Notes under the pieces: model-generated
The model's database searches: none
What the model saw: only the letters and a program-made list of their open reading frames with translations
What the model was told of the DNA's origin: nothing
NCBI GenBank assembly: GCA_019058315.1
Contig: JAHPZH010000002.1
Location: forward strand, 1,311,910-1,375,909
Origin: Candidatus Helarchaeota archaeon
Lineage (GTDB): Archaea > Asgardarchaeota > Lokiarchaeia > Helarchaeales > RDOG01
Reading direction: 5' to 3'
Length of the DNA stretch: 64,000 nt
Shown here: piece by piece, positions 8,030 through 28,871 of the stretch
Layout of the letters: the number at the start of each line of letters is the position of its first letter
How positions within the stretch are numbered: position 1 is the stretch's first letter
Position numbers and translations under genes: made by a program

Positions 8030-8800
8030 TTATTGGGTTTGAATTAATTGATGTAATTCTGGTAAAAATATGTCACTTTTTTGAGGTTCTGAAAGTTTTT
8101 CAGTTATAGAAGAAATCTTTCTTCCAGGAATGCTTATTTCCAGTGGAAAATCTTCTTTTCTTATTTCCCCTGAACAAATATATCCAAATTTAAATGTATT
8201 TTTAGCCAATTCTGGTATAATTTTCCAAATTTGATAAATATTTTTATCTTTAGTTTCCAAAGTTGTTTGTATTGATTTTGGCATCTTTTTAATAATTTTC
8301 AAATCTTTAGGAATTAATTCTTTAATAAAAAGTTCTGAAACCGATTTATAAAATTTTAAGTAAAAACTAACGATTTTTTCGTTTTTTTCTATATTAGGTT
8401 CAACAATCTTTACTATATCCACTATAGGTTTATTTTTATTCTTAGCTTTAACTGAAACTTTATTAAGTATGTAATAATTAGGTTCAATTTCGATTTTTGG
8501 CACTACAACCGGTTTGGGTATTGGTTTTATTTTGTTCTCTTTTCTTTTAACCTTTTTTACTTTTACAGGTTTAATTTTTTCGGGTTTTACCTTTTTTACT
8601 TTGATTTTAGTAGGTTTTATTTTAAATGTTTTTTTTAATCTCAAAGCTTTCCAAATTCGTTTATATGCAGCAAATGTAGATTTGGTAATGTAATGCTTAT
8701 TTGATTCGTTGAATTCTTTAGCATTCTTATAATCAAATGGATCTATCTTATCTATAACAAACCATCTTTTTTCATAATTTGATCTAGTCTTCCTATTCAT
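8030..8800 (-). CDS. Lys/Pro-rich linker protein with shared C-terminal domain (EFGYICSGE family)
   Basis: Basic low-complexity KIKPTKIKVKKVKPEKIKPVKVKKVK followed by a C-terminal domain shared with 8820..10385 and 18888..24599. Confidence 0.75.
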   Translation of the reverse strand: MNRKTRSNYEKRWFVIDKIDPFDYKNAKEFNESNKHYITKSTFAAYKRIWKALRLKKTFKIKPTKIKVKKVKPEKIKPVKVKKVKRKENKIKPIPKPVVVPKIEIEPNYYILNKVSVKAKNKNKPIVDIVKIVEPNIEKNEKIVSFYLKFYKSVSELFIKELIPKDLKIIKKMPKSIQTTLETKDKNIYQIWKIIPELAKNTFKFGYICSGEIRKEDFPLEISIPGRKISSITEKLSEPQKSDIFLPELHQLIQTQ

Positions 8801-8819
8801 GTCTTATATCCTGCAATAT

Positions 8820-10385
8820 TCATTTAAATCTTCTATTTTTTTGTAAAAAGTAATGAAGTTCGGGAAGAAAAAAGGTTCGTTTTTCCATTTGCGGAGAACT
8901 TTCATTTTTTAAATCAATTTTCAATTCTGGAATGTGTAATTCAATAGGAAATTCATTAATCACGGTCTCCCCAGAACAAATATAACCAAATTCAAATTGA
9001 TTTTTATGAATTTTAGGAACGATTTTCCAAACTTGTATGATATTATCATCTATAATTTCTAAAGATTTTTCGATTGAATCGGGATATTGCATGGTTACAT
9101 TAACATTATTTGGAATTTTCTCCTTAATATAAATTTCTTTAATTTTATCGTTAAGTTTTATGTAGAAACTTATTAGAAACTCGTAAAATTGAATATTAGG
9201 TTCTGTTATTCTAACTATTTCCAATATTGGAACGTCTTGTGATTCTGCCTTTAATATGAATTTATTTAAAACATAAAATTCGTGCTCTGACAGCAAATAG
9301 GTGTGTTTTAGGCTTTTTCCAATTTCTAGTGGAGAATATGTCCATTTAATTAGTTGATCTAACTCCATTTTTTGTAAATTTAGACCATAAGGATCTGTTG
9401 GTCTCGCTTCGAGTAAATTAAATGTTTTAGGAATTTGATCTTCTATAATTAAATTATCAATTATTTCTTGAATGTTTGAAAAACTGTCAGATGCTGTATA
9501 GTTTTTTTCAAAAGGAATAATATTAAAATAAGTATTCAAGATATTAACAGCATCTCCGATATTCATCAATATTGTTCTAGATATTCTTCTTTCTAAATTT
9601 AGTTTAATTTTTGCTTCTTGCTTAATTTGGATTTCTGGAATTACCCAACTTAATTGTAGACCGTCATCAAGAAGTTTTTTTGCAGGATCGATGGTTTTAA
9701 ATCCTATAGTTTCATAATTTTTTACTTTATATCCATAAGGAACTATGTTATTAACCATCACATCTTTTAATGGAACATCTAATGGGTTTTCAAATGAAAC
9801 TGTACAAGAATATTTTTTTACATCTTTTTCTTGCCTTTCAATCTCATTTTCAGTTTCAAACGTGTGCATTTTATTATCTTGATCAAAATAAAATATCGAA
9901 CTTTTAATTTTAGTAGGGATTTCTTCTATTAAATTGTCGATTTCCTCCGAAAGAAACTCAGTTCTATTTGTAGCAGGAAGGTCTAAATCGATTTTTCGTA
10001 TTTTTGCTTTAACATCAGGATCTTTAATATCTAAAGTTTTTGCAAGAAATGCCTCTTCCTCTGCCTTATCTATTTTATTATATATAGCATTAAGTATCGT
10101 TTGATAGTCGAAATCAGGGTATCCAAGCCATTCTAAATAATCTGATAACCATGTAGCCATTTTGCGTGGATAAATATCCAATTTCGCTTCATTTTGCCAA
10201 AAATCAGCAATATGATCTATTAACGCCTCAAAACTATTTACAATTATTTCATTGGTTTTTCTTTTTGAAATATAGTACTCAATTCTAACAAAAATAACTT
10301 CTAACTTTTCTATGGTTTCTAGTAATTCAAGTCGAATTCCATAAGTAATAGACCCTAATAGGTTCTTAATTTGCCATTTAGACAT
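8820..10385 (-). CDS. Cytosolic protein with DUF11-like beta-sandwich and shared C-terminal domain
   Basis: YSCTVSFENPLDVPLKDVMVNNIVPYGYKV resembles a DUF11-like strand pattern; C-terminal QVWKIVPKIHKNQFEFGYICSGE shared domain. Confidence 0.75.
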   Translation of the reverse strand: MSKWQIKNLLGSITYGIRLELLETIEKLEVIFVRIEYYISKRKTNEIIVNSFEALIDHIADFWQNEAKLDIYPRKMATWLSDYLEWLGYPDFDYQTILNAIYNKIDKAEEEAFLAKTLDIKDPDVKAKIRKIDLDLPATNRTEFLSEEIDNLIEEIPTKIKSSIFYFDQDNKMHTFETENEIERQEKDVKKYSCTVSFENPLDVPLKDVMVNNIVPYGYKVKNYETIGFKTIDPAKKLLDDGLQLSWVIPEIQIKQEAKIKLNLERRISRTILMNIGDAVNILNTYFNIIPFEKNYTASDSFSNIQEIIDNLIIEDQIPKTFNLLEARPTDPYGLNLQKMELDQLIKWTYSPLEIGKSLKHTYLLSEHEFYVLNKFILKAESQDVPILEIVRITEPNIQFYEFLISFYIKLNDKIKEIYIKEKIPNNVNVTMQYPDSIEKSLEIIDDNIIQVWKIVPKIHKNQFEFGYICSGETVINEFPIELHIPELKIDLKNESSPQMEKRTFFLPELHYFLQKNRRFK

Positions 10386-10428
10386 TTTCTACTCCGAGTA
10401 ATTTTAAAAAAATTGAGAATGATTGTTT

Positions 10429-12798
10429 CTATCTTGCTACTAATTCGTTAGTTTTAATGATGAGATGCGCATCGGTTTTCTTTGATGCTGAAACAATTAT
10501 TTCAGATTTATTGCCCGCCGAATTTACGATTGATACTTTAAAATTAGCGCCTTTACCGTTTAACCATACCCATTTGGCCAAATCTTCAATTTCCGTAAAT
10601 CTATTGAGTAAGGATTTCTCAGTAACAGTTTCTTCATCCCAATCAATCAATGTCATAGGTTTATATTTCGAGATTGAAAATGGTCCATCTTTAGGATAAA
10701 ATTCATCAGATGACTCAATCGGGTTATAATTAATATCCAATATGTTTAATTTTGGCATGTCCATTAAATTTTCCAGTATTGCTGATTTCTTTGATTCCCA
10801 TGGGTCATAAGTTAGAGCATTTTCAATTAATCTCAGATAGAAAGATTCATTTTTTAAATCCTTATATAGTGGACGGATTTTATTGAAAAGTTCAAAGTTT
10901 TTAGATTTATAGATATATAGGTATAGTAGGGAGAGTAAAAATCCTGCCTCTTGTTTGTTTACTTTTTTATGTTCACTGATTTTTTCTATACACCTGTCAA
11001 AATATTCATTTATTGTAGATATATCTGTTAGTTTTTTAAGTTCAAGATACATTTTACTTTCAAAAATATCTTCTAATTCTAAAAAGCTTAATGGATTTAG
11101 TTTCTGCTCAATTTTTAGAATGAAGTCATCCTGTTTTTCTTTAACACTAATATATCCTTTCTTGCTAAGATCATCAAGTAATGTTTTAGTTACTACTTCA
11201 TCAATTTTATAAAGATCTTGAACTTTACTTAAGCTAGTTTCCCCTTCATTATTTATTAAAAAAAGCAGCTGATACTTAGGACTCTTCTCTAAGAATTGAA
11301 TTACATCATCTAATTCCATCCTCAGTTTTTCACTAATTTCTTCAAATTCTTTTTTCATGTCATTTTTTATTGCATCAATATCTACTTCTTCCTTCGCTGC
11401 TATTTGAGTTTGCAAATTTTTTACATCTTGATCCTTTTTGTTAAGTTGTTCTTTAAGAGTTTCTATTTCTGATGTCTTTCCTTCTAATTCTTTAGAGGAT
11501 TCTTTCTTCGCATTTTCTAAATTTTTTTGATTTTCTTCAATTTGTTTTTTAAGCGTTTCTAATTCAGAAGTTTTTTCTTCTAACTGTTTTACTAATTCTG
11601 TGTCTTTTCCCTCTACTTGTTTTTTAAGTGCTTCTAATTCAGAAGTTTTTTCTTCCAACTGTTTTCCCAGTTCATCTTCTGTTTTATTTAATTTATCTCG
11701 CAAGGTTTCTAATTCAGTAGTTTTATCTTTTAATAGTGTTTCCAATTCAGCTTGAAATTCATCTTTAACTTTTTCGGATTCAGAAGCTTTAGCTTCCAAT
11801 TCTTGTCTAGTTTCATCAATTACTCCAGTTAATTCTTTTTCACGTTCAGCAAGTTTTTGTTTAATTTCATCAGATTCTGATGATTTCTTGTCCAATTCTT
11901 CCTTTGTTTTTAGGATCTGAGCTTCTAAATCTTTTTGCCTTTTTTCCAGTTCTTTTTTACTTAAACCGGTCTCTTTTTTTAAAGCTTCAAGCTCTTCTTC
12001 GCGGTCTTTAAGACTATCCTTAATTTTCTGCGATTCTGCCTCTCTATCTGCTAACTCCTTTTGTAATTCTTGTTTTACGGACTCAAGCTCCTCTTCTCGT
12101 TTATCAAGTTGAGCTTTTATTTTTGCAGCTTCTTCGGATTTATCTGCTAACTCTTGTTCTCTCAGTTCAAGTTGTTCTTTAATCCATTTAGATGTGGAAG
12201 CAAGCTTTTCTACTTCCTCCTCAGCTGCTTTGATTTGTCCTTTTAATTTATTAAGAGAATCTAACAGCATTTTGTAGTTACTTGATAACTCAGTTTTAAT
12301 TTCTTCAGACATACCTGAAACATTTTGATTTAATTTTTCAGAACCCTCTTCCAATTGTGGAACGAGTTTTTCTCTCATGAATACAAGTGATTCCATTTGT
12401 TCAAGTTTAAATGGAGTTTGACCTATTGTATCATCAAAAACACTTTGAGCTTCACTTATTCTTTTCCTCAATTGGACACGTAAATCCTCAAGTTCGTTTT
12501 TGAATTCTTCCTTTTTTGACTTTTTTACTAGTCCATCCAAAAATTTCATTGCTGGGGTGAATTTATCGTAAAATTCATCTGCTAGATAATCCATACTCGA
12601 TTCGACAATCTGGCTGAGGTCTAAATTGTTTATAAAATCTTGAGTTTCTTTACTCTTTAATTGAATCTGTTCAAATAAGTTCTTTAGAGAGTCTAAATTT
12701 TTATCGAATAAAGCAATCGATTTTAATTCAATTTCTGATTTGGAAAGTGTCTCAATTTTTCTAATTAGTTCATTTACTTCTTCCATTTCTTCAATCAC
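10429..12798 (-). CDS. Long coiled-coil protein with C-terminal winged-helix-like and helical regions
   Basis: Hundreds of residues of heptad-rich K/E/L sequence; KVQDLYKIDEVVTKTLLDDLSKKGYISVKEKQDDFILKI is wHTH-like. Confidence 0.8.
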   Translation of the reverse strand: MIEEMEEVNELIRKIETLSKSEIELKSIALFDKNLDSLKNLFEQIQLKSKETQDFINNLDLSQIVESSMDYLADEFYDKFTPAMKFLDGLVKKSKKEEFKNELEDLRVQLRKRISEAQSVFDDTIGQTPFKLEQMESLVFMREKLVPQLEEGSEKLNQNVSGMSEEIKTELSSNYKMLLDSLNKLKGQIKAAEEEVEKLASTSKWIKEQLELREQELADKSEEAAKIKAQLDKREEELESVKQELQKELADREAESQKIKDSLKDREEELEALKKETGLSKKELEKRQKDLEAQILKTKEELDKKSSESDEIKQKLAEREKELTGVIDETRQELEAKASESEKVKDEFQAELETLLKDKTTELETLRDKLNKTEDELGKQLEEKTSELEALKKQVEGKDTELVKQLEEKTSELETLKKQIEENQKNLENAKKESSKELEGKTSEIETLKEQLNKKDQDVKNLQTQIAAKEEVDIDAIKNDMKKEFEEISEKLRMELDDVIQFLEKSPKYQLLFLINNEGETSLSKVQDLYKIDEVVTKTLLDDLSKKGYISVKEKQDDFILKIEQKLNPLSFLELEDIFESKMYLELKKLTDISTINEYFDRCIEKISEHKKVNKQEAGFLLSLLYLYIYKSKNFELFNKIRPLYKDLKNESFYLRLIENALTYDPWESKKSAILENLMDMPKLNILDINYNPIESSDEFYPKDGPFSISKYKPMTLIDWDEETVTEKSLLNRFTEIEDLAKWVWLNGKGANFKVSIVNSAGNKSEIIVSASKKTDAHLIIKTNELVAR

Positions 12799-12921
12799 TT
12801 TAATATTTTCTTATTTTGATAAGTTACTTAAATTTCCATGAGTTTATAAGATATTACCTTAAATTTGATAACTGTTTTAATCCATAATTATTTAATTTTC
12901 ATAATTTTTAAATTTTTGAGA

Positions 12922-15195
12922 TTATAAAAAAAATCCTCCAGAAATCTCATAGATTTTTTGTGAAAGTTGGGGAATATTTTTAGGGATTAGGTTTTCAGTT
13001 TGAGGTCTTTTAGAATAAATTAATAGATAATAAACTTTTTCTTTAAATGAGAATTTATAAAAATATATTTTTCCCTTTCCTAATTTTAAATCACCTTCAA
13101 TATCAATAACCGTCTTCTCTGGGACAGTATCAGTTTCTTCTCTAGCCCAACTATTAATAAAATAGTGAAGTGCTTCATTTGCAATGCTTAAGTTTGCCAC
13201 ATTTCCATACTGTTCGAGAATAAAGAAATTTTCTTCCAATAAAATGACTGCAGAAGATAATGTTTTTTTCATAAATCCCTTCAATAGGTTTCTAAATAAA
13301 TTTTCAACTTTTACTATTCTCTTAAGACCTTCTGAAAAACATACTAATATTGACCAATAATCATAAATGGAGGTTTCAAAAAATGTAACATTCTTTATCT
13401 CTTTAAAACGTTCTTTTATTTCATTAACTTTAGATTGTATTTCATTCTGGGTTAATTGGTCAGGATCTAATTTATGAATTTGAACGAGAATTTTAGATGG
13501 ATCGATACAATTAATTTCTTGTAACTCTAATAACTGTTTAAAATATTCTATAGATTCATCGATCGTGTCTTCTTGCACATCGACAAAGTAAAAAATTAAA
13601 TCTATGTCAGAAAAACACTGATCAGATTGCAAAATATAATCTTTTCTATAGATATCTTGTCCGCCATAATCCCAAATACTAAATTCATATCCTAAAATAT
13701 TCAAAACTTTTCTAGATATCCCTTTTGTAGGTTTGAGTTGATGAATTGTACTAAAATTTTTTTGAAGCACTTCTAAAAAGGATGTTTTTCCGGCTGCTCC
13801 TAACCCCAATAAACAAATCTTTTTTATTAATTCTTCTTCTTCAGGTATTGTTTCAGGTTCTGTAATTATTTCTTCTTCTATCTCTAATCTTTTTATCAGT
13901 TCCCTTATAGTTGGACTTTTAACTTCTAATATTTCTAAAATTTTTCCTAAATCAGAACTCATATCTTGTAATTCTGTTAAATATTTATTCGAGACTATAA
14001 GAGCAAGATTTTGAAGATATTTTAAGATGTTTTTAACTTCTTTAGGAATATGACCTGATTTAATCGTAATCTTTTTTAATGCCGCTCTTAATTGAGAAAA
14101 AAGCGAGATTACACTTTCATTATCAAATTCTATTCGTTTGAGGGGCTCCACAGAGTGTTGAATTACTTCATTTAACTTCTTTTGAGTTTTAATAATGTTT
14201 TGTTTAAAATTTTCTCTAAAATTTTCTGTTATTTCAGTATTTTGCGCATTTACTTTATTTGATATTTCTTGAAAAGATTTCAATAAAGGATCAAAATAGT
14301 CATAAAAAATGTCACTTAATAAATTAAGATCTTCTTGAAAAATAACACCAAAGTTTAATTCTTCAAAAAAAACATCAATCTCTTTAATTGCTTTAAAAGC
14401 TTCTGAGGTAAAACGTTTTAAATTTTCTAGAGTCTCTGAAAATACTTCAATTGAATTTAAAATTACTTTAATTTCTTCACGATTATTAAGAGCAACCAGT
14501 TCATTTATTTTATCTATAATTTCGGAATATTCTACTTTTTTTGAGTTGAGTTTATTATAAATTGTTTCCAATTGTTCTTTATTTTCGATAATTTTTTCTT
14601 TGTCAGATTCGAATGACTCTAGAAAACTTTCTAATTCTTTTTTAATGGTTTTAAATTCGGTTTTTTTTCCTCTTCTATTGTCATTAATATAATATAGAGG
14701 ACCAATTAGAAGAAGGTAAATATCATCTGATTTTTTAATGATTTCAGGAGGTACTTTTTCAAAAATCTCCCCTAATTTACCAAGTGAGTTATAAATTTTT
14801 GATATGCGATTTTGACTTATATCTTTAAATTTATCAAATGGCCCAACAATTTCTGGCGTTTTTTCGATTATTTTATTTAGGAAATCTTGAAATTTATCAA
14901 TATTTTGTTTTAGATGTAAGGAGAAATCTTTAATTTCACCAGAAACCTCCTCAATATCTTTTGACAGTTCGAATGAAGAGTTAATAAATGGTACAAAATT
15001 TGTTAAAATTTCCTTTTTTAATATCAATAAATCCTCTTTAAAAATTGCCCCCAAACTTAATTCTTTGATTTTTTCTTCAGCTCGTTCAATAATATAATAA
15101 ATTTTATTCACTATCTTCTCGGAATTAATCAGATTATCTTTAACTGGTTTGAGCGAGCTTAATTCAAATTCATATTTAGTAAACTCTAATTTCAA
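12922..15195 (-). CDS. Coiled-coil protein fused to C-terminal Rag/Gtr/Arf-like GTPase domain
   Basis: KKICLLGLGAAGKTSFLEVL (G1), FSIWDYGGQDIYRK (G3), ILVQIHKLDPD (G4, HKxD as in Rag/Gtr), FFETSIYD (G5-like), preceded by ~450 aa of coiled coil. Confidence 0.85.
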   Translation of the reverse strand: MKLEFTKYEFELSSLKPVKDNLINSEKIVNKIYYIIERAEEKIKELSLGAIFKEDLLILKKEILTNFVPFINSSFELSKDIEEVSGEIKDFSLHLKQNIDKFQDFLNKIIEKTPEIVGPFDKFKDISQNRISKIYNSLGKLGEIFEKVPPEIIKKSDDIYLLLIGPLYYINDNRRGKKTEFKTIKKELESFLESFESDKEKIIENKEQLETIYNKLNSKKVEYSEIIDKINELVALNNREEIKVILNSIEVFSETLENLKRFTSEAFKAIKEIDVFFEELNFGVIFQEDLNLLSDIFYDYFDPLLKSFQEISNKVNAQNTEITENFRENFKQNIIKTQKKLNEVIQHSVEPLKRIEFDNESVISLFSQLRAALKKITIKSGHIPKEVKNILKYLQNLALIVSNKYLTELQDMSSDLGKILEILEVKSPTIRELIKRLEIEEEIITEPETIPEEEELIKKICLLGLGAAGKTSFLEVLQKNFSTIHQLKPTKGISRKVLNILGYEFSIWDYGGQDIYRKDYILQSDQCFSDIDLIFYFVDVQEDTIDESIEYFKQLLELQEINCIDPSKILVQIHKLDPDQLTQNEIQSKVNEIKERFKEIKNVTFFETSIYDYWSILVCFSEGLKRIVKVENLFRNLLKGFMKKTLSSAVILLEENFFILEQYGNVANLSIANEALHYFINSWAREETDTVPEKTVIDIEGDLKLGKGKIYFYKFSFKEKVYYLLIYSKRPQTENLIPKNIPQLSQKIYEISGGFFL

Positions 15196-15257
15196 ATAAT
15201 GCCCATTCCATTATAGGAATTTTATTGCAAAAATAAAAAAAAAAAATAAAAAATAGT

Positions 15258-17420: not shown

Positions 17421-17818
17421 TTATTTAAATTTATTTTATTATCCAAATTTTTCTTTTTTTTATTTTTTCGGATTATTATGAATCTTAATTTCTTTTAATT
17501 TAGGTTTTATGTCGATTTGGATATTCTAATATTATAATATTCCGATATATAAATTATACTATAATTTATAAATTCATGTTAAAAAAGAAAATGAATTATA
17601 TTATTAAAATACATAAAAAATTTTTTTATTTTCTCTTATTTAACAAGTAAATGGAAAGTTAGTAATAATTTCCGAGATTTCTCTATTCAATTCTAATTTA
17701 AATTAACTATATAAAAAGAACTTTCTTATTCTTTTTATAATAATAAATAAATATAAAAAAATGTAATTAACTTTTTTATAAGACTAATTTAAATAATAAA
17801 AAATAATTAAGAAAAAAA

Positions 17819-18625: not shown

Positions 18626-18887
18626 TCTCATCTTACCTCAAATAGATAAAATTATAACACTGTTTAGTTTTTATTGATAATTAATATAAAAAGAAAATTA
18701 CTGAAATAAATTTAAACTACCACCTAAAAAATAATTATAATAAAATAAACAATATGAAATTTAAAATAAAGTTTATAACCATTTAATGCAAGTAGAAAAT
18801 AATTTGCTTAGACTTTTCCATCAAAATTAAGCAAAATTTTCTTCTAAATTCATAAAATGATTGTAAGTAAAAAAATAAACTTAAAAC

Positions 18888-21800
18888 TTGCTAAAAAATA
18901 AGCAAGGAAAAGGTATTTGCATGAAAACTAATAAAAAAATCCTATTTTCTATTTTAATGGCATTTAATACCTTTTGTTCCCTAATTTCATTTTTCAATAT
19001 GAATTCATTATTTTTACTAAACAATCTTAGTGGGATTAATGGAATTAATTCAAATTCTGAAATTTTTAACCTTCACAGTGACAATTATCAAATAACAGAA
19101 CAATGGCTAAAAAATCCTACATTCGATTCTCCAATAAGCCCAAATTGGACACCCACGACATCTGGTGAATTAACTGACTTTGAGCTTTTAGGAGGTTCAG
19201 GACTTGCTAATTATACAGTAATCGGAGAGCAAGGAACTGAAATATTTGAGCGTAATTTTTCGGAAAGTGGTTGGATTAAGATGCATAACCCGGATTTTCC
19301 CTCTTATCCGAGTGAAGTAAAAGCAACTTCCTTTGAGGGAATCGATTCAGATGGGATTTTAGCCAATCATTCGTGGGATGAAACAGTAGGAGATCAAGTA
19401 GGACAAGATCCAAGTGTCCTCTGGAAACGTAATGAATCTTTTACAAAAGATATGAGTGATTATGAAATCAGTTCTGCATCTATAACAGCAGTTTTCAATG
19501 TAAGTGCTGATTCTAATATTGATAGGGAAAACGATCCGGAAGGAAATTCTGGTTATACTTGGGATCATGTTCTATTTTTTATTAAATTATCAGATATTAA
19601 CGCAAGTCGCAATTATCTTGTAGCTTATTATCAGTTTGAAAACGATACAACTCTTAACGATACTTATATGAAAACATTTCATGAGGAAAATCTAATTTTT
19701 TATTTGTCCTCTATATTTGAACAAGGGACCGATTTTACAATAACAGTAGGTATCAATTTCTTCTGCGAAGACAACATGGATCCACAAGACACCGATACTT
19801 GGTATTATGCGAGAATAAAATCACTTAATTTAACATTTTCTTACAAAAAAATAATAAATCAAGACACACGTGGATATTGGATCCAAACAAGTGATAAATT
19901 AAATGTAACTGGTAAAAATTTTGAAATTGATGAAGCTAAATTGTATTTTCAATACCGGGTTGATCCATCATGGCCTATCGAATCTCCGAATTCAGAATTT
20001 ATAATAAAAGTAAATAATAATACTTATTCTGAAACCATCAAACTTTCAAATTTACCTAATACATTAGAAGAAGCAAGAATTAATGGTTTTGATGTAAAAC
20101 ATCTTTTGGTAAAATATGATAATGTATCCGTATCATTGGAAGTAAGTCTTGCTGATACTTTTAATTTATCAACTAATAAGACTATATCTATCGATAATGT
20201 TAGATTAAATATAACCTTAACAGTTTTAGAAGAGAAAAGCAAGCGTAAACCACCATCTTTGATCCTACCGACAAGCGGCGAGGATTGGACATGGTTAATT
20301 ATTTTACTTAGCATTTTATTAACTGCTATAATGCTCGCTCAGGGTATTTATACATTTCGTGTTAAACGTCCTCCTATGATTCGTAAAATTAGAAAACTTA
20401 AAAAGAGAATCAAGAAAAACAATTTAAAAAATCCAGTTCAAGTACAAAAGAGATCAACAATCATTCAGAGAGTTTTAAGTTATAAATTAAAATCATCCCA
20501 CTTTGCATATGCCTCTAAACCATTAAAGCCGAAAGTTGAAAAGAAATTAAAACAAAAAAGACCTAAAAAAGAAGGTAATCTTAAATTATTATTATTCTTT
20601 GCATTATTTGCATTTCTATTATTTATAATCTCCTCGTCAGCGATTACCAATGGATCATTAGATCCCAATATATTGCCTGCTATCCGAAATTTTATTTTAC
20701 CTAAAAATTCCAATTTTGATCTTCAAAGTAAAGACACTCATGAAACTAAACAATGGATAAAGAATCCATTATTCAATTCACCAATAAATCAATATTGGTC
20801 AACTTCTAAAGGAGGAGATTTAACCGATATGGAGTTAACTGAAGATACTGGCTATGTCAATTATGTTGTTATGGGGGATAATAGGACTGAAAATTATATT
20901 AACAATCCTCCAGAAATTAATAATTGGACTATGGTGCATGATCCTGATCATCCAACTTTTCCAAATGAAACATTATCTGGAACCGAAAATGCTTGGAGTG
21001 GAATTGTAGGAGATGGGGCATTTTCAAATCATAGTTGGAGAGAAGGAGGGCCAAATCAATTAGGACAAGATCCGAGTGTTTTGTGGAAACGAAATATTAC
21101 ATTACCAGTTAATTTTACTGATTATGAAATAACTTCAGCTTCACTTTCTACTAACATAAACGCTAGTCCACTTTCAAATGTTGAGAATGCCGGTGATGGA
21201 TCATATCAGGGAAGAGGAGATTACGTACGCTTTTTCATCAGAGTATCTGATTTAAGTGGAAATATTACATATGAAATTGCCAATTATCTCCATGAAGGTG
21301 ATAGTGACCTTTCTGATACGCCAATGAATAATGTGACTGACACTGATCTTATGTTTTTTTTAAGTTCAGTATTACAAGAGGATGGTTATAATTTTACATT
21401 AACTATGGGTATCAATTTTTGGTGTGAAGATAATGAAGGGACTGATAATGATGAGTGGGAATATACATACATAAAAGAATTCAACCTACATTTTACATAT
21501 CATAAAAAAATAAATCAATTTACATATGCTCGTTGGGATCAAGTAGGAGATAGATTAAATGGTCGAGATTTCAGAATAAATGAAGCAAAATTATATTTTC
21601 AATATAAAACTGATACAAATTGGACCCATTATTCCAATAATTCAGAATTCAGAATCGTCATTAATAGTAGTACACATTCGGAAACAATAAAATTAACATT
21701 GGCAAATTCAACATTTCAAGATGCGAAATTTATTGGTTTTGATGTTACGAATCTAATGATAAAAAATGATAATATAAGAGTCTCATTGGAAGTTTATATA

Positions 21801-24599
21801 GCAGACAATTTTCCTTTAGAAGAAAACTTAACTATATCTATCGATAATGTCTCCTTATATATTAGTCGAACCATTATAATACCTCCTGATCTAAGTTCAT
21901 TATTGCTATTATGGCCAGTAACTAATCCTAATTGGATGATTTTCTTTTTAATTATAATGATTATTGTCTTTTCTATCCTTTTTTCAGCATATCAGACATA
22001 TTATAGATATCCACCTACGGTTAGAACACTTAGAAAGCTTAGAAAAGATATAAAGGGAAATAAATTTGATAAACCAGCATCAGTTAAAACTAGAGAAAAT
22101 TTAATACAAAATCATTTAGATAAGAAATTAAAAGGATTTGCTCTAAAAAAAGCCCCTGAAATAGATACATCCAAATTGATAACCAACGCAATGATAAATC
22201 AAATTGCTTCTGATATATTATCCCAAGTACCTCATGAAAAACTTGCTAATATAGATGCTTCTAAGTTATCTTCTGAAGAAATGAAGCCTATTACTACCAA
22301 TTCTTTAACAAATGCTTTGAAATCTATGTTACCAAAAAGTAAAATGCTTGAAATTGATCCTTCTACATTATTGACATTAGCAGTTTTGAATGGCATTGCC
22401 AATGCTATAAAATCCCAGTTGCGAAAAAAAGAACCTGAAGTGGAAAAACCTGAAATAACTGATGAGATGATAAATAAAATTGCAGCCGATTTAATAGCTC
22501 AAGTATCTCAAGAAAAACTTGTTGATCTAGATGCATCTAAACTATCTTCTGGAGAAATGAATAATATAATTACAAATTCTTTGAAATCATTGCTACCAAA
22601 AAGAAAAAGATTGGAAATTACCACTGCTCAATTGTTAACCGTCGATGTTTTGAATAAAATTGCCAGTGCTACACAATCCCAATTAAAAGAAAAGCCTGAG
22701 GAAGAACTTGAACCGTTAACAGATCAAATGATAAATAAAATTGCAGCCGATTTAATAGCTCAAGTACCTCAAGAAAAGCTTCTTGATCTGGATGCGTCTA
22801 AACTATCTTCTGGAGAAATGAATAATATAATTACAAATTCTTTGAAGTCATTGTATCCAAAAAGAAAAAGGCTGGAAATTAATACTGCTCAATTATTAAC
22901 TGTCGATGTTTTAAATAAAATTGCGAGTGCTACACAATCCCAACTAAAAGAGAAACCTGAAGAAGAACTTGAACCGTTAACCGAAGAAATGATAAATAAA
23001 ATCGCTGCTGATGTAATCTCTCAAGTTCCTCGCGAGAAACTTCTTGATATTGATGCTCTTAAATTATCTTCTGAAGACATGGATTATATAATTACAAATT
23101 CTTTAAAATCATTATATCCTCAAAGAAAATTGCTTGATATAGATATTGCGAAATTATTATCTGTAGATGTTTTGAATAAAATTGCCAGTGCCATAAAATC
23201 CCAACTAAAAGAAATACCTGAAGAAGAAGTTGAACTGATTACAGATGAAATGATAGATGAAATAGCTGCTGATTTAATGAATAAGTTTCCTCAGCAAAAA
23301 CTATCCCGTCTAGAACCCTCCGATTTGAAAACTAAAAAAATTAATAAAATAATTGTAAAAAATTTGAAATCTATGTTACCAAAGGAAAAATTTGCTAAAA
23401 TCTCTGATGCAATGAACGATGATTTTTATGATAACCTTATTAATTCTATAAAATCTCAACTTCCAAGAGATAGATTACTTGATTCATTTATTGCTGAAAT
23501 GATAACTGAAGAAAATGTTAATAGAGTTGCCAACGACTTATTATCTCAGGTACCCAAGGAAAAATTAAACGATCAAAATAAAGAGGCATTATTATCCGAG
23601 GTAACGGAGGAAAAAATAGAAAGTATTATAGAATCCATTTTACCAAGAGAAAAAATTCTTGAATTGGATACCTCTAAAATAATGTCTGATGAATTTATTC
23701 ATAAAATTGCTAATACTATAAAAACTCAGCTTCCAAAAGAAAAACTTCTGATATTTGATACATCTGAAATGTTAACTGAAGAAGTTTTTAATAAAATTAT
23801 CGATCGAATAAAAGCCCAACTTCCAAAAGAAAAATTACTTGAATTAGATACATCCGAATTATTGACTGACGAAATGAAAAATGTGATCTCAAATGCAATA
23901 AAAGCTCAACTGCCAAAAGAAAAACTACTTCAAATAGATCCAACTGAACTTCTAACCGACGAAATGATAAATGGGATTGCAACCGCCGTTATAACGCAAC
24001 TTCCAATAGAAAAGCTACTCGAGCTTGACACATCCGAGTTATTGACCCAGGAAACGATAAATAATATAAATAATGCTGTTAAAGATGAGCTAATAAAAGT
24101 AAAACCACCATTACCAGAGCTCACTTCATATATTCTTACTAAAGTCAATATTAGACTTAAAAAGAAAAAGAGACCTTTAGTAGATATTTTAAGATTTGTT
24201 GAACCAAACCTTCAATTTAATGAGAAATTAATTACTTTTTATCTTAAATTCCGTGCTTTTGTACCTGAAATTCATATTAAGGAAATTATTCCTGAGAATT
24301 TAAAAATCAAAAAACAAATACCATTCCTAGTACCTAGAGAAGTTCAAAAAACTGAAGATGGAAAAACTATTCAAATCTGGAAGATTGTTCCAGAACTTGC
24401 TCGAGATACTTTTGAATTTGGATATATATGTTCAGGAGAAGGAATTGAAAACGAATTTCCATTTGAGATGGAAATACATGGTATGGAGATATCATCTGCC
24501 AAAGAAAAGCAAAAAGAGTTGAAGAAAACAGAAGTTTTTACCCCCAATTTTCATGAATTAATTCAAAAATATAAAGAAACAGAATATAAGGAGATCTAA
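18888..24599 (+). CDS. Giant (1903 aa) membrane protein: duplicated ectodomain, TM helices, 87-aa and 30-aa cytosolic repeats, shared C-terminal domain
   Basis: Two ectodomain copies (QWLKNPTFDSPISPNWT / QWIKNPLFNSPINQYWS), each followed by TM + basic segment (FRVKRPPMIRKIRKLKKRIKK / YRYPPTVRTLRKLRKDIKG); C-terminus IQIWKIVPELARDTFEFGYICSGE. The true start may be the ATG at 18921. Confidence 0.88.
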   Translation: MLKNKQGKGICMKTNKKILFSILMAFNTFCSLISFFNMNSLFLLNNLSGINGINSNSEIFNLHSDNYQITEQWLKNPTFDSPISPNWTPTTSGELTDFELLGGSGLANYTVIGEQGTEIFERNFSESGWIKMHNPDFPSYPSEVKATSFEGIDSDGILANHSWDETVGDQVGQDPSVLWKRNESFTKDMSDYEISSASITAVFNVSADSNIDRENDPEGNSGYTWDHVLFFIKLSDINASRNYLVAYYQFENDTTLNDTYMKTFHEENLIFYLSSIFEQGTDFTITVGINFFCEDNMDPQDTDTWYYARIKSLNLTFSYKKIINQDTRGYWIQTSDKLNVTGKNFEIDEAKLYFQYRVDPSWPIESPNSEFIIKVNNNTYSETIKLSNLPNTLEEARINGFDVKHLLVKYDNVSVSLEVSLADTFNLSTNKTISIDNVRLNITLTVLEEKSKRKPPSLILPTSGEDWTWLIILLSILLTAIMLAQGIYTFRVKRPPMIRKIRKLKKRIKKNNLKNPVQVQKRSTIIQRVLSYKLKSSHFAYASKPLKPKVEKKLKQKRPKKEGNLKLLLFFALFAFLLFIISSSAITNGSLDPNILPAIRNFILPKNSNFDLQSKDTHETKQWIKNPLFNSPINQYWSTSKGGDLTDMELTEDTGYVNYVVMGDNRTENYINNPPEINNWTMVHDPDHPTFPNETLSGTENAWSGIVGDGAFSNHSWREGGPNQLGQDPSVLWKRNITLPVNFTDYEITSASLSTNINASPLSNVENAGDGSYQGRGDYVRFFIRVSDLSGNITYEIANYLHEGDSDLSDTPMNNVTDTDLMFFLSSVLQEDGYNFTLTMGINFWCEDNEGTDNDEWEYTYIKEFNLHFTYHKKINQFTYARWDQVGDRLNGRDFRINEAKLYFQYKTDTNWTHYSNNSEFRIVINSSTHSETIKLTLANSTFQDAKFIGFDVTNLMIKNDNIRVSLEVYIADNFPLEENLTISIDNVSLYISRTIIIPPDLSSLLLLWPVTNPNWMIFFLIIMIIVFSILFSAYQTYYRYPPTVRTLRKLRKDIKGNKFDKPASVKTRENLIQNHLDKKLKGFALKKAPEIDTSKLITNAMINQIASDILSQVPHEKLANIDASKLSSEEMKPITTNSLTNALKSMLPKSKMLEIDPSTLLTLAVLNGIANAIKSQLRKKEPEVEKPEITDEMINKIAADLIAQVSQEKLVDLDASKLSSGEMNNIITNSLKSLLPKRKRLEITTAQLLTVDVLNKIASATQSQLKEKPEEELEPLTDQMINKIAADLIAQVPQEKLLDLDASKLSSGEMNNIITNSLKSLYPKRKRLEINTAQLLTVDVLNKIASATQSQLKEKPEEELEPLTEEMINKIAADVISQVPREKLLDIDALKLSSEDMDYIITNSLKSLYPQRKLLDIDIAKLLSVDVLNKIASAIKSQLKEIPEEEVELITDEMIDEIAADLMNKFPQQKLSRLEPSDLKTKKINKIIVKNLKSMLPKEKFAKISDAMNDDFYDNLINSIKSQLPRDRLLDSFIAEMITEENVNRVANDLLSQVPKEKLNDQNKEALLSEVTEEKIESIIESILPREKILELDTSKIMSDEFIHKIANTIKTQLPKEKLLIFDTSEMLTEEVFNKIIDRIKAQLPKEKLLELDTSELLTDEMKNVISNAIKAQLPKEKLLQIDPTELLTDEMINGIATAVITQLPIEKLLELDTSELLTQETINNINNAVKDELIKVKPPLPELTSYILTKVNIRLKKKKRPLVDILRFVEPNLQFNEKLITFYLKFRAFVPEIHIKEIIPENLKIKKQIPFLVPREVQKTEDGKTIQIWKIVPELARDTFEFGYICSGEGIENEFPFEMEIHGMEISSAKEKQKELKKTEVFTPNFHELIQKYKETEYKEI
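22191..23320 (+). repeat. 261-bp (87-aa) intragenic tandem repeat, about 5 units
   Basis: ATGATAAATAAAAT-type anchors at 22191, 22467, 22728, 22989 and 23250 (ATGATAGATGAAAT); the last three intervals are exactly 261 bp, the first is 276 bp. Confidence 0.9.
23641..24090 (+). repeat. 90-bp (30-aa) intragenic tandem repeat PKEKLLELDTSELLTDEMxNxIxNAIKAQL
   Basis: CCAAAAGAAAAA-type anchors at 23643, 23733, 23823, 23913 and 24003; exact 90-bp spacing. Confidence 0.9.
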
Positions 24600-24604
24600 A
24601 TACC

Positions 24605-25516
24605 TTGCAAAATAATCTTCTGGAAAAAGCAAGAAAATTAAATAATACCGGAGCATGGTACGAAGCTGAAGATGATCTAAATAATGCTCTTGCGAGTTAT
24701 AAGGAAGCTTTAGAACTCTATGGTGAGTTAAATGATCCCGAAGGAAAAGCCATCGCTTTAAATAATATTGGGGGAATCTATAAAAAAACTGGGAAATTAG
24801 ATGAAGCTCTTAAAGTTTTTAATGAATCTTTGAAAATTGCTGAAGAATTAGAAGATATGCAAGGAAAAGCCACAAGATTAAATAACATTGGTGTGATATA
24901 CCAAACCAAAGGGGAGTTAAATAAAGCTCTTGATGTTTTTCAAAAATCATTAACAATAGCTGAAAAGCTAAAAGATCCAAGATTAAATTCTATATGTTTA
25001 AACAACAACGGTATGATATACCAATCTAAAGGGGAATTAGATAAAGCTCTTGATTATTATAAAAAAGCCTTGAAAATTGATGAAAAATTAAAGAATGAAC
25101 TTGGAAAGACTTTAAGATTGAATAATATAGGTAGGATCTATCAAGCTAAAGAAGAACATAATAAAGCACTTGAATTCTATAAAAAATCCTTGAAAATTGC
25201 TAAAGATTTAAATGAAAAGCACTTAATAGCAACAAGATTAAATAATATTGGAACAACTTTAAGGGTTAAAGGAGATTTAGATAAAGCTTTTGAGAATTTT
25301 GAAGCTGCTTTAAAAATTGATGAAGAATTAAAGGATGAATACGGAAAAGCTACAAGATTGAACAATATTGGAGGAATTTTAAAAGATAAAGGTGACTTTA
25401 AAACGGCTTTAAATTATTGGGAAAAAGCTGAGAAAATTTTTAAAAAATTAGGGCAAAAAAAAGAATACGATACAGTAAGTAAGAATATTTCAATTATTAA
25501 AGAAAAAATTTCATGA
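24605..25516 (+). CDS. TPR-repeat protein
   Basis: Regular ~40-aa repeats ATRLNNIGxIYxxKGELDKALxxYxKSLKIxEKLKD; TTG start. Confidence 0.92.
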   Translation: MQNNLLEKARKLNNTGAWYEAEDDLNNALASYKEALELYGELNDPEGKAIALNNIGGIYKKTGKLDEALKVFNESLKIAEELEDMQGKATRLNNIGVIYQTKGELNKALDVFQKSLTIAEKLKDPRLNSICLNNNGMIYQSKGELDKALDYYKKALKIDEKLKNELGKTLRLNNIGRIYQAKEEHNKALEFYKKSLKIAKDLNEKHLIATRLNNIGTTLRVKGDLDKAFENFEAALKIDEELKDEYGKATRLNNIGGILKDKGDFKTALNYWEKAEKIFKKLGQKKEYDTVSKNISIIKEKIS

Positions 25517-25533
25517 TATAGGAGATATAAAAT

Positions 25534-26655
25534 ATGGTAAAAGGATTTTCAGTTTGGAAATGGTCAATTCAAGAAGGTTTATTATTAATTAGAAAATTTC
25601 CACCAGAACTAGAAATTGGAACTCAAGATATGATGCGAGTTTTTTATAATCACATTACAGGTGCAGAAAAGCAGATAGACGTAGTTCTTCGTTTACCAAG
25701 TATGGAATCAAGCATTGCTAGTCATTTTACTGGAGTAGAATCAAAATTACCTTACATGATTAATGTAATATTGGAGTTGGGCGAAGATCCAGAAATGTTT
25801 GGGAATGTTATTACTCGAATCAATTCGGAAGTAATGGACATTCTTAAAAAATTAGATGAAAAAGGGGCTCAGCCTTTAGAGATATATGATGAATTAGATG
25901 AATATTTCAAAAGAATGTTAGATCTGTTTCAAAGGCTAGGAAATCTTTCTAAGGAGCAAAAAGTTGCCCAAATTTATAGTAATCCTAAAGGTCACCAAAT
26001 CATGGGCCTTTTACAAGATGGACCAATTTCTAAAAAGGAATTAAGATATAGTCTTGAGAAAAATCTTAATCAAGTAATCACAAATCTTGAACTTACGCTT
26101 GACCCATATACAGAAACAGAGATTATCAAAGAGGATTGGATTGAAGGAGATAGAGACCAATATTTATTTTTAATGAAAGATTTCACAATAATGAGAGCCC
26201 CTGCTACTAAAATTGTTGAAAAAGCAAGGAAAAATAAACCAACTCCAGGTGTGGCAAAGGAATATTTAAAACAAGTAAAGGAATTTTTCTCAACATATAA
26301 ACCAACTTATGAAGATGGCATGAAAATTTCTGTTATACTTATGCATCCAGACATGTACGACGTTCTTAGATTGTTTTCTTTTGACTCTCATAATTATAAG
26401 AAAATTCCTCCAGGTTATGGTGGTCCTGAAATGAAGAAAATCATAGACTTACTAATTCAAGAGAAAATTCTTACAATGATAACTGAAGGTAAAAGTGAAT
26501 GGGTAATGTTACTTTCAGATGTTGATGTAGCCTTATTTTTTCCTGAATATCTATTAGAAAAAATTAGAATAGCTTTAAAGGCAGGTAAAATTAAAAAACA
26601 AGCCGCAATCAAACATTTAAATTTACTTGAGAAATCTTATTCAAAAGGAACATAA
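25534..26655 (+). CDS. Possible longin-like N-terminus plus winged-helix-like domains
   Basis: N-terminus VKGFSVWKWSIQEGLLLIRKFPPE is longin-like (weak); HQIMGLLQDGPISKKELRYSL and ...IIDLLIQEKILTMITEGKSEWVMLL look wHTH-like. Confidence 0.5.
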   Translation: MVKGFSVWKWSIQEGLLLIRKFPPELEIGTQDMMRVFYNHITGAEKQIDVVLRLPSMESSIASHFTGVESKLPYMINVILELGEDPEMFGNVITRINSEVMDILKKLDEKGAQPLEIYDELDEYFKRMLDLFQRLGNLSKEQKVAQIYSNPKGHQIMGLLQDGPISKKELRYSLEKNLNQVITNLELTLDPYTETEIIKEDWIEGDRDQYLFLMKDFTIMRAPATKIVEKARKNKPTPGVAKEYLKQVKEFFSTYKPTYEDGMKISVILMHPDMYDVLRLFSFDSHNYKKIPPGYGGPEMKKIIDLLIQEKILTMITEGKSEWVMLLSDVDVALFFPEYLLEKIRIALKAGKIKKQAAIKHLNLLEKSYSKGT

Positions 26656-26669
26656 AAATAATAAAAAAA

Positions 26670-27737
26670 TTAGAAGTTTGGGGCAAAAACTGCATATCCT
26701 CTTTCTGTACCTATAGAATATATGTTAAAAGACTTTCCACTCTCTGGATTTATTACTAATTTTAAAACTGGAAACAGATAAATAGGAAATTTAGGAGATT
26801 CCGGTCCTTTAGATTTTTGTAAATTTTGAAATAGTTTTTTTGCATTATTCATTCTATCTTTGATATCTCCATCAAAATAGCCTAACTGTGCTTTTACAGC
26901 ATCTTCGTCTAAATCTTTCAAAGATTTTATGTAAATTCCGTCAACAGTAGTGATTATTTCGCTTAATTCTTCTCCCATTTTTTTCTCAAATTCTGGCTTA
27001 AAAAACAAATGTGGTATATATTCTCCTTTAGCTGTTTTAAAGGGGACTGATTCTACTTTATATTTGTAGTTCTTTCCAGTTCCTTTACAATCCTTACAAG
27101 GTAATTTACCAAAATCTTGTTTACATTTATTGCATAAATCATTCCCTAAACCTCTACAGGATTGACAAAAGACCAGTCCAGACCCGTAACATTCGCCACA
27201 ATTATAAATTAACATTTTCTTTTCTTTTTTATTATTTGTAATCATTTCAATATTGAATGATAATTTGCCTGAGCCTTTGCATTTCTTACACTTAACTTGT
27301 CCACTTCCATTACATTTCTCACACTGAATGAGCCCAGTCCCTTTGCATTTTTTACAAGAACTATATCCCTTTCCATTACAGCTCTCACAATTAATTTCCT
27401 CTATCGAATTATACATTGGAACATATTCTTTTCCTTTCCAATCCAACTGATTTACACTTTTAGGAAAATCATAGAATTTGACTTTACTCAGTTTATCCTG
27501 ATTAACCTCAAATTCTTCATAAGTTCTACTCGCTTTTTCAGCAGAAAGTTCAGACCTGAAAAAAAATACAGCGCTTTTTACCACATTTTCAACAGTTTCG
27601 GCAGCAGAGATGTTACCTTTTTCAAACTTAACTCCCTTTACGCCAAAACTTTTTTCTAATTGTTTTGCAGCTGTCTTATTTATAAATTTTTCAAAAACAT
27701 CATCAGATACTGGAGATTTAACACTCAATTTAATCAC
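26670..27737 (-). CDS. DnaJ-type zinc-cluster protein without J domain (paralog A)
   Basis: Eight CxxC modules, mostly CxxCxGxG (CESCNGKG, CKKCKGTG, CEKCNGSG, CKKCKGSG, CGECYGSG, CQSCRGLG, CNKC, CKDCKGTG); no HPD J domain. Confidence 0.85.
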   Translation of the reverse strand: MIKLSVKSPVSDDVFEKFINKTAAKQLEKSFGVKGVKFEKGNISAAETVENVVKSAVFFFRSELSAEKASRTYEEFEVNQDKLSKVKFYDFPKSVNQLDWKGKEYVPMYNSIEEINCESCNGKGYSSCKKCKGTGLIQCEKCNGSGQVKCKKCKGSGKLSFNIEMITNNKKEKKMLIYNCGECYGSGLVFCQSCRGLGNDLCNKCKQDFGKLPCKDCKGTGKNYKYKVESVPFKTAKGEYIPHLFFKPEFEKKMGEELSEIITTVDGIYIKSLKDLDEDAVKAQLGYFDGDIKDRMNNAKKLFQNLQKSKGPESPKFPIYLFPVLKLVINPESGKSFNIYSIGTERGYAVFAPNF

Positions 27738-27806
27738 AAATTAATTTTAGTATGAAATATTATTTGATAATTTCATTTTAACTATGTTGAATCAAAAAAA
27801 AAAGAA

Positions 27807-28871
27807 TTAAAAATTAGGAACGAATACATCATATCCTTTTTCAGTACCTATGGAGAGGATATCAAACTTTTTTCCTTTAACAGTCTTAGATTCCAACCTT
27901 AATAACGGAAACAGATATATTGGGAATATAGGTGATTCAGGACCTTTCCTTTTCTCTAATTCCTTGAATAGATTCTTCGCACTACTCATTCTACTCTTAA
28001 TATCGCCATCCCAATATCCTAGTTGTGCTTTTATAAATTTCTCATCCATATTATCAAGATTTTTGATGTAAATCCCATCTACATTATTAATAACTAATCC
28101 TAGTTCTTCACCTATCTGTTTTTCAAATTCTGGCTTAAAAAACAAATGTGGTATATATTCTCCTTTAGGAATTGTGAAAGGTACCGACTCTATTCTATAT
28201 TTATAATGTTTTCCTGTGCCATTACATTCTTTACAAAATATCTTACCAAGATTTGGCTTACAATCACCACAAACCGACTTTGCACTCCCACCACAGTCAC
28301 TGCATGCTATTTTTCCTGATCCTAAGCATTCTCCACACTGATAATTCATGGATTTTTTGTCTTTTTTATCTGTATTTCCATCAACAACTTCTATTTCAAT
28401 TTTTAATTGCCCAGTTCCATCGCATTTTTTACATTTTACTGATCCCTTTCCCTCACATTTTTTACACTTAATTTCTCCTGTACCACCACATTTTTCACAA
28501 TTTTTGTAACCCTTTCCAACACATTTTTTGCAATTTACACTTGAAATTGAATCATACATTGGAAGTGCCTGTTCACCTTCCCAGTCTAAGGAATTCACAT
28601 TTTTTTTAAATTGGTAAAATTTTGTCTTTTCCAATTTTTTTAGGTCTGCATCTACTTCTTCAGAAGTTTTAGCTGCTTTTTCGGGAGAAAATTTGGATCT
28701 AAAGAAGAAAACAGCGCTCTTAACAACATTCTTCACAGACTCAGCAGCTGAAATGTTGCCTTTTTCAAATTTAACTCCTTTTACTCCAAACTTTTTCTCT
28801 AATTTGTCGGCAGATGTCTTTTCTACAAATTTAGCAAACACATCGTCACTTAATGGACTTTTAACACTCAT
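27807..28871 (-). CDS. DnaJ-type zinc-cluster protein without J domain (paralog B)
   Basis: Close tandem paralog of 26670..27737, collinear over full length; eight CxxC modules. Confidence 0.85.
   Translation of the reverse strand: MSVKSPLSDDVFAKFVEKTSADKLEKKFGVKGVKFEKGNISAAESVKNVVKSAVFFFRSKFSPEKAAKTSEEVDADLKKLEKTKFYQFKKNVNSLDWEGEQALPMYDSISSVNCKKCVGKGYKNCEKCGGTGEIKCKKCEGKGSVKCKKCDGTGQLKIEIEVVDGNTDKKDKKSMNYQCGECLGSGKIACSDCGGSAKSVCGDCKPNLGKIFCKECNGTGKHYKYRIESVPFTIPKGEYIPHLFFKPEFEKQIGEELGLVINNVDGIYIKNLDNMDEKFIKAQLGYWDGDIKSRMSSAKNLFKELEKRKGPESPIFPIYLFPLLRLESKTVKGKKFDILSIGTEKGYDVFVPNF

What the first reader, a model, noticed from the sequence alone, without database searches (positions are those of the whole stretch)
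8030..28871. Candidate undescribed GTPase/scaffold system: a 21-kb cluster with a membrane sensor-like protein, Rag-like GTPase, coiled coils, beta-sandwich proteins, TPR and zinc proteins
Seen: five minus-strand genes (8030..17420) diverge from four plus-strand genes (17819..26655), followed by two tandem zinc proteins. Three members share one C-terminal domain, and one of those carries ectodomains. Rag/Gtr GTPases in eukaryotes act on membrane-anchored scaffolds. Inference: the giant membrane protein presents its shared domain in the cytosol as a platform for the soluble shared-domain proteins, the coiled-coil GTPase and the adaptors. I know of no described system with this composition, but I could not search.
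Basis: partly seen in the sequence, partly recalled or inferred. Interest (0 to 1): 0.88.

Follow-up and report, generated by a model that had tools for sequence, protein, structure and literature searches.

The report
Asgard surface-receptor, longin-adaptor and GTPase cluster
In a relative of the archaea closest to eukaryotes, this gene cluster joins a cell-surface protein to an internal adaptor of the longin family, a Rag-like GTPase and clathrin-adaptor-like proteins; part of it recurs across the Asgard phylum and looks like an undescribed way for such cells to couple their surface to GTPase switches.

Summary
In detail: eleven genes at the stated coordinates in a 5.8-Mb Asgard (Lokiarchaeia-type) genome, with three proteins (A, B, G) sharing a C-terminal domain (40-51% identity). 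The cluster is not conserved as a unit; it is two modules placed back to back. Module 2 (F-G-H-I): G is a surface protein whose cytosolic juxtamembrane tail is conserved while ectodomains vary. I, previously unannotated, models confidently as longin + two winged helices. Receptor-I-coiled-coil order recurs in 12 of 13 loci fetched; distant relatives fuse signal peptide-ectodomain-TM-tail-I in one chain. Tail hits lie within 10 kb of an I gene in 46 of 57 cases. I occurs in 158 of 226 Asgard genomes; outside Lokiarchaeia a small-GTPase gene lies within 3 kb of 16 of 23 copies (background 11-12%). Module 1 (A-E): E resembles the clathrin-adaptor mu-homology domain; D is a Rag-type GTPase whose N-terminus is two copies of C's N-terminal domain; E-C-B plus a GTPase recurs in Sigynarchaeum. 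Binding and output are inferred.

The parts
8030..8800 (-). A: basic linker plus shared C-terminal domain (domain about 8039-8473)
8820..10385 (-). B: N-terminal helical region, DUF11-like beta-sandwich, shared C-terminal domain (about 8841-9278); family found across the phylum (81/228 genomes)
10429..12798 (-). C: N-terminal helical domain, long coiled coil, MarR-like winged helix (weak) and conserved C-terminal part; homologues only in Sigynarchaeum among loci fetched
12922..15195 (-). D: two copies of C's N-terminal domain (about 14791-15102 and 14143-14523) plus Rag-type GTPase domain (13216-13821) and Rag-like C-terminal domain; motifs GLGAAGKTS, WDYGGQ, HKLD, ETSIYD
15258..17420 (-). E: tandem beta-sandwich protein with mu-homology-domain-like region at 16398-17051 (aa 124-341) and DUF11 repeats; no signal peptide
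17421..17818 (.). 398-bp divergent intergenic region between the two operons
17819..18625 (+). F: coiled-coil protein, the middle part of a larger TrmB-HTH/coiled-coil/C-domain family (HTH and C-terminal domain lost here)
18888..24599 (+). G: surface protein with two ectodomain-TM-tail units, helical repeats (about 22155-24107), shared C-terminal domain (24111-24572)
20331..20486 (+). conserved cytosolic juxtamembrane tail 1 of G
21993..22148 (+). conserved cytosolic juxtamembrane tail 2 of G (YRYPPTVRTLRKLRKDIK...)
24605..25516 (+). H: tetratricopeptide-repeat protein, between G and I; not found in the paralogous locus on C11
25534..26655 (+). I: longin domain (25534-25857) plus two winged helices (25951-26202, 26308-26538); Asgard-wide family
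26670..28871 (-). J and K: tandem DnaJ-type zinc-repeat proteins without J domain; judged neighbours, not members

Best explanation
The locus is a lineage-specific joining of two units. Unit 2 is an Asgard surface-receptor module: single-pass surface proteins with variable ectodomains and a constant basic juxtamembrane tail, read on the cytosolic side by protein I (longin + two winged helices). In most Asgard classes sampled, I is paired with a longin-like/Arf-like GTPase; in Lokiarchaeia that slot holds a TrmB-HTH/coiled-coil protein. Unit 1 is a cytosolic GTPase-adaptor set: E (mu-homology-like beta-sandwich array), B and A (beta-sandwich), C (helical/coiled coil) and D (Rag GTPase carrying C-type domains). 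In this genome G gained B's C-terminal domain, so the receptor tail carries an address for the adaptor set. Proposed working: engagement of G outside the cell changes tail/I occupancy; I's longin surface controls a small GTPase (D here), whose GTP state gathers the C/B/E adaptors at the receptor to cluster or sort it or to link it to the cytoskeleton. Shown here: the anatomy, the domain sharing, and the tail-I, fused receptor-I and I-GTPase associations. Inferred: tail-I binding, I acting on a GTPase, D being its client, and the final output.
For: I model pLDDT 90, pTM 0.83, with longin order of strands and helices plus two winged helices. PDB fold matches include NPRL2/NPRL3 of GATOR1, Lst4 longin, a Lokiarchaeota roadblock-longin, AP2 mu and FLCN. 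Receptor-I-Ffull order in 12 of 13 Lokiarchaeia loci chosen only because they hold an I orthologue. One-chain fusions signal-ectodomain-TM-tail-I in G022 and G044. Tail profile: 46/57 hits within 10 kb of I, 25/36 outside the loci used to build it. I in 158/226 Asgard genomes. Outside Lokiarchaeia 16/23 I copies have a GTPase within 3 kb, 15 on the same strand and nine within 30 bp, against 17/156 and 38/322 background ORFs; eight of eight such proteins tested by Pfam have an Arf-like domain preceded by 115-125 aa that read like a longin. L191 holds receptor-I-GTPase as overlapping genes. D is Rag-type, with similarity into the C-terminal domain, and carries two copies of C's N-terminal domain, seen in no other ORF of the set outside the C family. 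B's domain is fused to G. E-C-B plus a GTPase recurs in Sigynarchaeum. E: Adap_comp_sub above cut-off, AP-3 mu1 E 1.2e-4, AP2 mu2 fold match 1.2e-9.
Against: No other genome searched has both modules together, and no second species of this genus was available. In Lokiarchaeia I is rarely near a GTPase (3/30), so D as I's client rests on this one locus. Foldseek matches for I are weak for the whole chain (best E 1.3e-3, and that is CodY); only the longin part matches eukaryotic regulators well. E matches integrin Ig legs as well as mu subunits. B relatives in other classes are not near receptors, C or E. F here has lost its winged helix and C-terminal domain.
Confidence: 0.5

Rival explanations
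1. Receptor-coupled gene regulation: I is a CodY-like sensor/winged-helix DNA-binding protein and F-type proteins are TrmB-like transcription regulators, so the surface protein signals to transcription; the GTPase is incidental.
For: CodY is the top structural match of I; I has two winged helices; full-length F has a TrmB winged helix.
Against: I is fused behind TM segments at the membrane in several relatives, outside Lokiarchaeia I pairs with GTPases, and F in this window has lost its winged helix.
Confidence: 0.22
2. Proto-adaptor coat: E, B, C and D form a mu-adaptin-like cargo adaptor controlled by a Rag/Arf-type GTPase that gathers receptors such as G into buds or protrusions. This is a more specific version of the best explanation.
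For: E resembles mu-homology domains by sequence and fold; Asgard archaea have dispersed AP-complex domains (PMC10307638); the B domain is on the receptor tail.
Against: No adaptin HEAT subunit, sigma subunit or clathrin-like protein in the cluster; E has no N-terminal longin; only 13 of 33 E-family members match the mu family while all 33 match DUF11; six E-family loci sit beside CheA instead.
Confidence: 0.2
3. Chance neighbourhood: two unrelated operons share a divergent promoter region; the shared domain on G is an incidental duplication and the parts do not work together.
For: Each module occurs without the other elsewhere.
Against: Two separate domain-sharing events inside the cluster (B to A and G; C to D) and a GTPase with E-C-B in Sigynarchaeum are unlikely for unrelated neighbours.
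Confidence: 0.2

Closest known systems
Ragulator-Rag / GATOR1 (NPRL2, NPRL3) in eukaryotes
   Same: Rag-type GTPase with similarity into the Rag C-terminal domain (D); a longin + winged-helix protein (I) whose longin matches NPRL2/3; action at a membrane platform (inferred).
   Different: No Ragulator roadblock subunits, no DEPDC5, no Rag heterodimer partner in the cluster; the anchor is a surface receptor rather than LAMTOR1; I's partners elsewhere are receptors and longin-Arf-like GTPases.
AP-complex mu subunit (Adap_comp_sub, PF00928)
   Same: E aa 124-341 matches most of the family (positions 16-232 of 259) above its curated cut-off; predicted fold matches AP2 mu2 and AP1 mu1.
   Different: E has further DUF11-like sandwiches, no N-terminal longin, and no adaptin large or small subunits beside it. 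Mu C-terminal domains in Asgard archaea were already reported (PMC10307638).
TRAPP and other longin/roadblock-GTPase platforms, including Asgard longin-GTPase fusions (PMC10933270)
   Same: Longin proteins encoded next to or fused with small GTPases.
   Different: Here the longin protein also carries two winged helices and is genetically or physically attached to surface receptors with a constant tail. That paper states that MK-D1 GTPase genes are generally not in operons with longin genes.
NPRL2-like longin asCOG family (named in PMC9834061)
   Same: Probably the orthologous group that contains I (inference from the name; the asCOG itself could not be searched).
   Different: No receptor association, conserved tail or GTPase pairing is mentioned in the passages read.
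TrmB-family regulators (PF01978)
   Same: Winged helix at the N-terminus of full-length F homologues (E 3e-5, just under the curated cut-off).
   Different: A coiled coil of about 300 aa in the middle; encoded downstream of receptor and I; the window's F keeps only the coiled coil.

Membership tests
Rag/Gtr GTPase (D) | Gtr1_RagA G domain as the best family, with G motifs | tested here: met
   PF04670 2.2e-24 against Arf 4.4e-15; GLGAAGKTS, WDYGGQ, HKLD, ETSIYD
Rag/Gtr GTPase (D) | C-terminal roadblock-like dimerisation domain | tested here: inconclusive
   Alignment to the solved protein 8yl2 extends through most of the C-terminal part, E 1.4e-30; no structure predicted for D
Ragulator-Rag complex | Roadblock scaffold subunits and Rag heterodimer in the locus | tested here: not met
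   No roadblock family hit among cluster proteins; single GTPase gene
GATOR1 NPRL2/NPRL3 (I) | Longin followed by winged-helix domains | tested here: met
   Model me1a6949b1dbd secondary structure; matches 9o5d_D, 7t3b_B/C, 8fw5_C
GATOR1 NPRL2/NPRL3 (I) | Sequence or full-length fold homology to NPRL2/3 | tested here: not met
   Profile search of PDB sequences returned no NPRL2/3; TM-score over the query at most 0.29 against GATOR1 chains
GATOR1 NPRL2/NPRL3 (I) | Rag GAP activity | not testable with these tools
   needs biochemistry
AP-complex mu subunit (E) | Mu-homology domain | tested here: inconclusive
   PF00928 4.8e-8 above cut-off; AP-3 mu1 1.2e-4; AP2 mu2 fold match TMt 0.68 but rmsd 7 A and integrin equally good; 0 of 14 control genomes ring although 4 hold DUF11
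AP-complex mu subunit (E) | N-terminal longin domain before the MHD | tested here: not met
   Predicted N-terminal order is beta-beta-beta-alpha-alpha-alpha-beta-alpha, not the longin order
AP complex | Adaptin large subunits and sigma subunit present | tested here: not met
   Not found among the cluster proteins; whole genome not searched for them
TrmB regulator (F) | N-terminal TrmB winged helix | tested here: not met
   Window F lacks it and no remnant lies nearby; full-length relative has it

The most novel reading that the evidence does not exclude
Asgard archaea have a phylum-wide class of surface receptors signalling through a constant juxtamembrane tail, a longin/winged-helix adaptor and a small GTPase, a kind of transmembrane GTPase signalling not described in prokaryotes; in this lineage it has recruited a Rag GTPase and mu-adaptin-like proteins, a possible forerunner of GTPase-controlled adaptor recruitment to receptor tails in eukaryotes.
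Probability: 0.35. Interest if true: 0.93.

Novelty: new variant of a known kind. Interest (0 to 1): 0.74.

Why it matters
Asgard archaea encode scores of small GTPases, but published work notes that matching GTPases to their regulators from genome layout is difficult (PMC10933270). The conserved tail, the fused receptor-I chains and the I-GTPase gene pairs give concrete partners to test, and tie cell-surface proteins, prominent on Lokiarchaeal cells (PMC9834061), to eukaryote-like GTPase machinery. If the adaptor reading holds, it bears on how receptor-tail recognition by GTPase-controlled adaptors arose.

Tried and rejected
Whole-cluster conservation: rejected. Zinc proteins as members: no relatives in the loci searched. 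GTPase as regular neighbour of the E family: only 5 of 39 E-centred genes have one within 6 kb. Sequence matches of I to PDB chains: mostly Protein A and tag helices, spurious. Promoter and terminator scans: no excess over shuffles, and sigma-70 models do not apply to archaea. PHROGs: weak hits only, no viral origin indicated. One genome-contig scan found only Sigynarchaeum. Several region requests failed for length and were repeated.

Full report
What is there. The window lies in a 5.79-Mb genome (12 contigs) with 54 Gtr1/RagA matches, an Asgard genome of the class that contains Ca. Sigynarchaeum springense (G043), i.e. Lokiarchaeia (class name from my own knowledge). I name them A-E (minus strand), F-I (plus) and J, K (zinc proteins). 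The shared C-terminal domain of A, B and G is confirmed at 40-51% identity.

Two modules, not one system. E-family proteins occur in 57 of 60 relatives, I-family proteins in 60 of 60 and B-family proteins in 81 of 228 Asgard genomes, but not together. Synteny over about 80 fetched stretches shows two separate units. Module 1 (E-C-B with a GTPase) recurs in Sigynarchaeum, whose 32-kb contig holds E, C, B, a Ras GTPase with an N-terminal extension and a second B-C pair. Module 2 is receptor-I-F: in 12 of 13 Lokiarchaeia loci fetched because of a close I orthologue, one to three G-type surface genes precede I, and a 487-667-aa F homologue (514 in L084) follows. The own genome has a second copy in the order F-G-I; its G (1104 aa) lacks the helical repeats and the shared domain.

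The receptor tail. G consists of two ectodomain-TM-tail units. The tail after the membrane segment (consensus KYPPxVRKIRKLKKKIxKGKxxKPI...RExII) is conserved while ectodomains differ in length and sequence. A tail profile finds 57 hits in 26 genomes; 46 lie within 10 kb of an I gene, and 25 of 36 when loci used for the profile are set aside; the misses are on contigs where no I copy was listed. In the own genome all five hits are beside I. By my estimate about five I copies in 3.6 Mb would put roughly 3% of random sites within 10 kb.

Protein I. AlphaFold2 with 43 family members gives pLDDT 90: a longin domain (aa 1-108) and two winged helices (domain names are my reading of the order of helices and strands). 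Foldseek finds NPRL2/NPRL3, Lst4, FLCN, AP2 mu, Sec22b and a Lokiarchaeota roadblock-longin among weak matches, with CodY first. No full-length homology to NPRL2/3 is shown. In G022 and G044 one chain holds signal peptide, ectodomain, TM, tail and then I, so I works on the cytosolic side, attached to receptors.

The GTPase link. I occurs in 158 of 226 Asgard genomes. I fetched 20 stretches from other classes chosen only for I. Of 23 I copies (one counted twice in overlapping stretches), 16 have a small GTPase within 3 kb, 15 on the same strand and nine within 30 bp, against 17 of 156 and 38 of 322 background ORFs. Eight of eight such proteins tested by Pfam have an Arf-like G domain after a 115-125-aa N-terminal part that reads like a longin (MIR-V-I---G---F-K-Y; the longin reading is by eye). 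In L191 receptor, I and GTPase genes overlap. The remaining copies outside Lokiarchaeia neighbour a receptor-like gene instead. In Lokiarchaeia only 3 of 30 I copies have a nearby GTPase; the F family takes that place. The GTPase profile was trained partly on these proteins, but the background used the same profile and Pfam agrees independently.

Module 1. D is a Rag-type GTPase, closest in sequence to the solved 'GTP-binding proteins' 8yl2 and 8zla and then to RagA/Gtr1. Its N-terminus holds two copies of C's N-terminal domain (iE 4.7e-7 and 4.1e-10), found in no other ORF of the set outside the C family. E is a tandem beta-sandwich protein. Aa 124-341 match Adap_comp_sub above its cut-off; 13 of 33 family members match it, best 7.4e-13, while all 33 match DUF11. 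The family profile hits AP-3 mu1 at 1.2e-4 among PDB sequences. The model (pLDDT 87) matches AP2 mu2 (E 1.2e-9, TMt 0.68), but integrin Ig legs score alike. PF00928 rings in 42 of 226 Asgard genomes and 0 of 14 controls, four of which have DUF11. Mu C-terminal domains in Asgard archaea were reported before (PMC10307638). The shared domain is weakly related to E's last sandwich (hhalign E 5.6e-4). B is the phylum-wide holder of this domain; A and G probably received copies of it in this lineage (inference).

Mechanism, with shown and inferred steps. Shown: anatomy, constant tail, receptor-I fusion, I-GTPase gene pairing, domain sharing within the cluster. Inferred: the tail binds I; I's longin acts on a GTPase, as longin platforms do in eukaryotes; in this genome the client is D; the B domain on G recruits the A-E set; the output is receptor clustering, sorting or attachment. 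The main rival is receptor-coupled transcription through winged helices and TrmB proteins; loss of the winged helix from the window's F argues against that here.

Verdict. The conserved core is receptor tail + I (+ GTPase), and the 21-kb cluster is a local elaboration. I found no description of this receptor-I-GTPase association in ten searches of open-access papers; subscription papers and preprints were largely out of reach, so novelty is provisional.

Noticed in passing
L057:7330-11428, L059, L067, L068, L071, L074: E-family paralogues sit directly beside CheA-like genes in six Lokiarchaeia loci (gaps of 14-63 bp), one of them in the window's own genome (C5:938536), suggesting a link between these beta-sandwich proteins and chemotaxis arrays.
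   Followed up: partly
L096, L097 (G022:C9:432001-466000): Tandem giant proteins of about 2650 aa made of signal peptide, huge ectodomain, TM, tail and I domain.
   Followed up: partly
L046:8545-13086 (Ca. Sigynarchaeum springense contig): The Sigynarchaeum module 1 also holds a Ras GTPase with an N-terminal extension that reads like a longin, a 640-aa protein without Pfam match, and a leucine-rich-repeat-like protein.
   Followed up: no
window 26670-28871: Tandem 63%-identical proteins with DnaJ-type CxxCxGxG repeats but no J domain and about 100 conserved residues on each side; no relatives in the loci searched.
   Followed up: partly
window 5158-6750 and 1-402: Surface protein with repeated AWxDxRxG...YAQRINxxG units, N-terminal signal-like and C-terminal TM segments; a related fragment at the window edge.
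   Followed up: no
L064:7855-16360 (own genome C5:537001-557000): A third receptor-I-F locus in the own genome, with an 1813-aa receptor of repeated Ig-like units, I downstream of it, and an F homologue convergent with I.
   Followed up: partly
L137, L139-L143, L154: In one other Asgard family B is a protein of about 520 aa directly beside a 200-208-aa gene; the one tested had only a very weak CTLH-like match.
   Followed up: no
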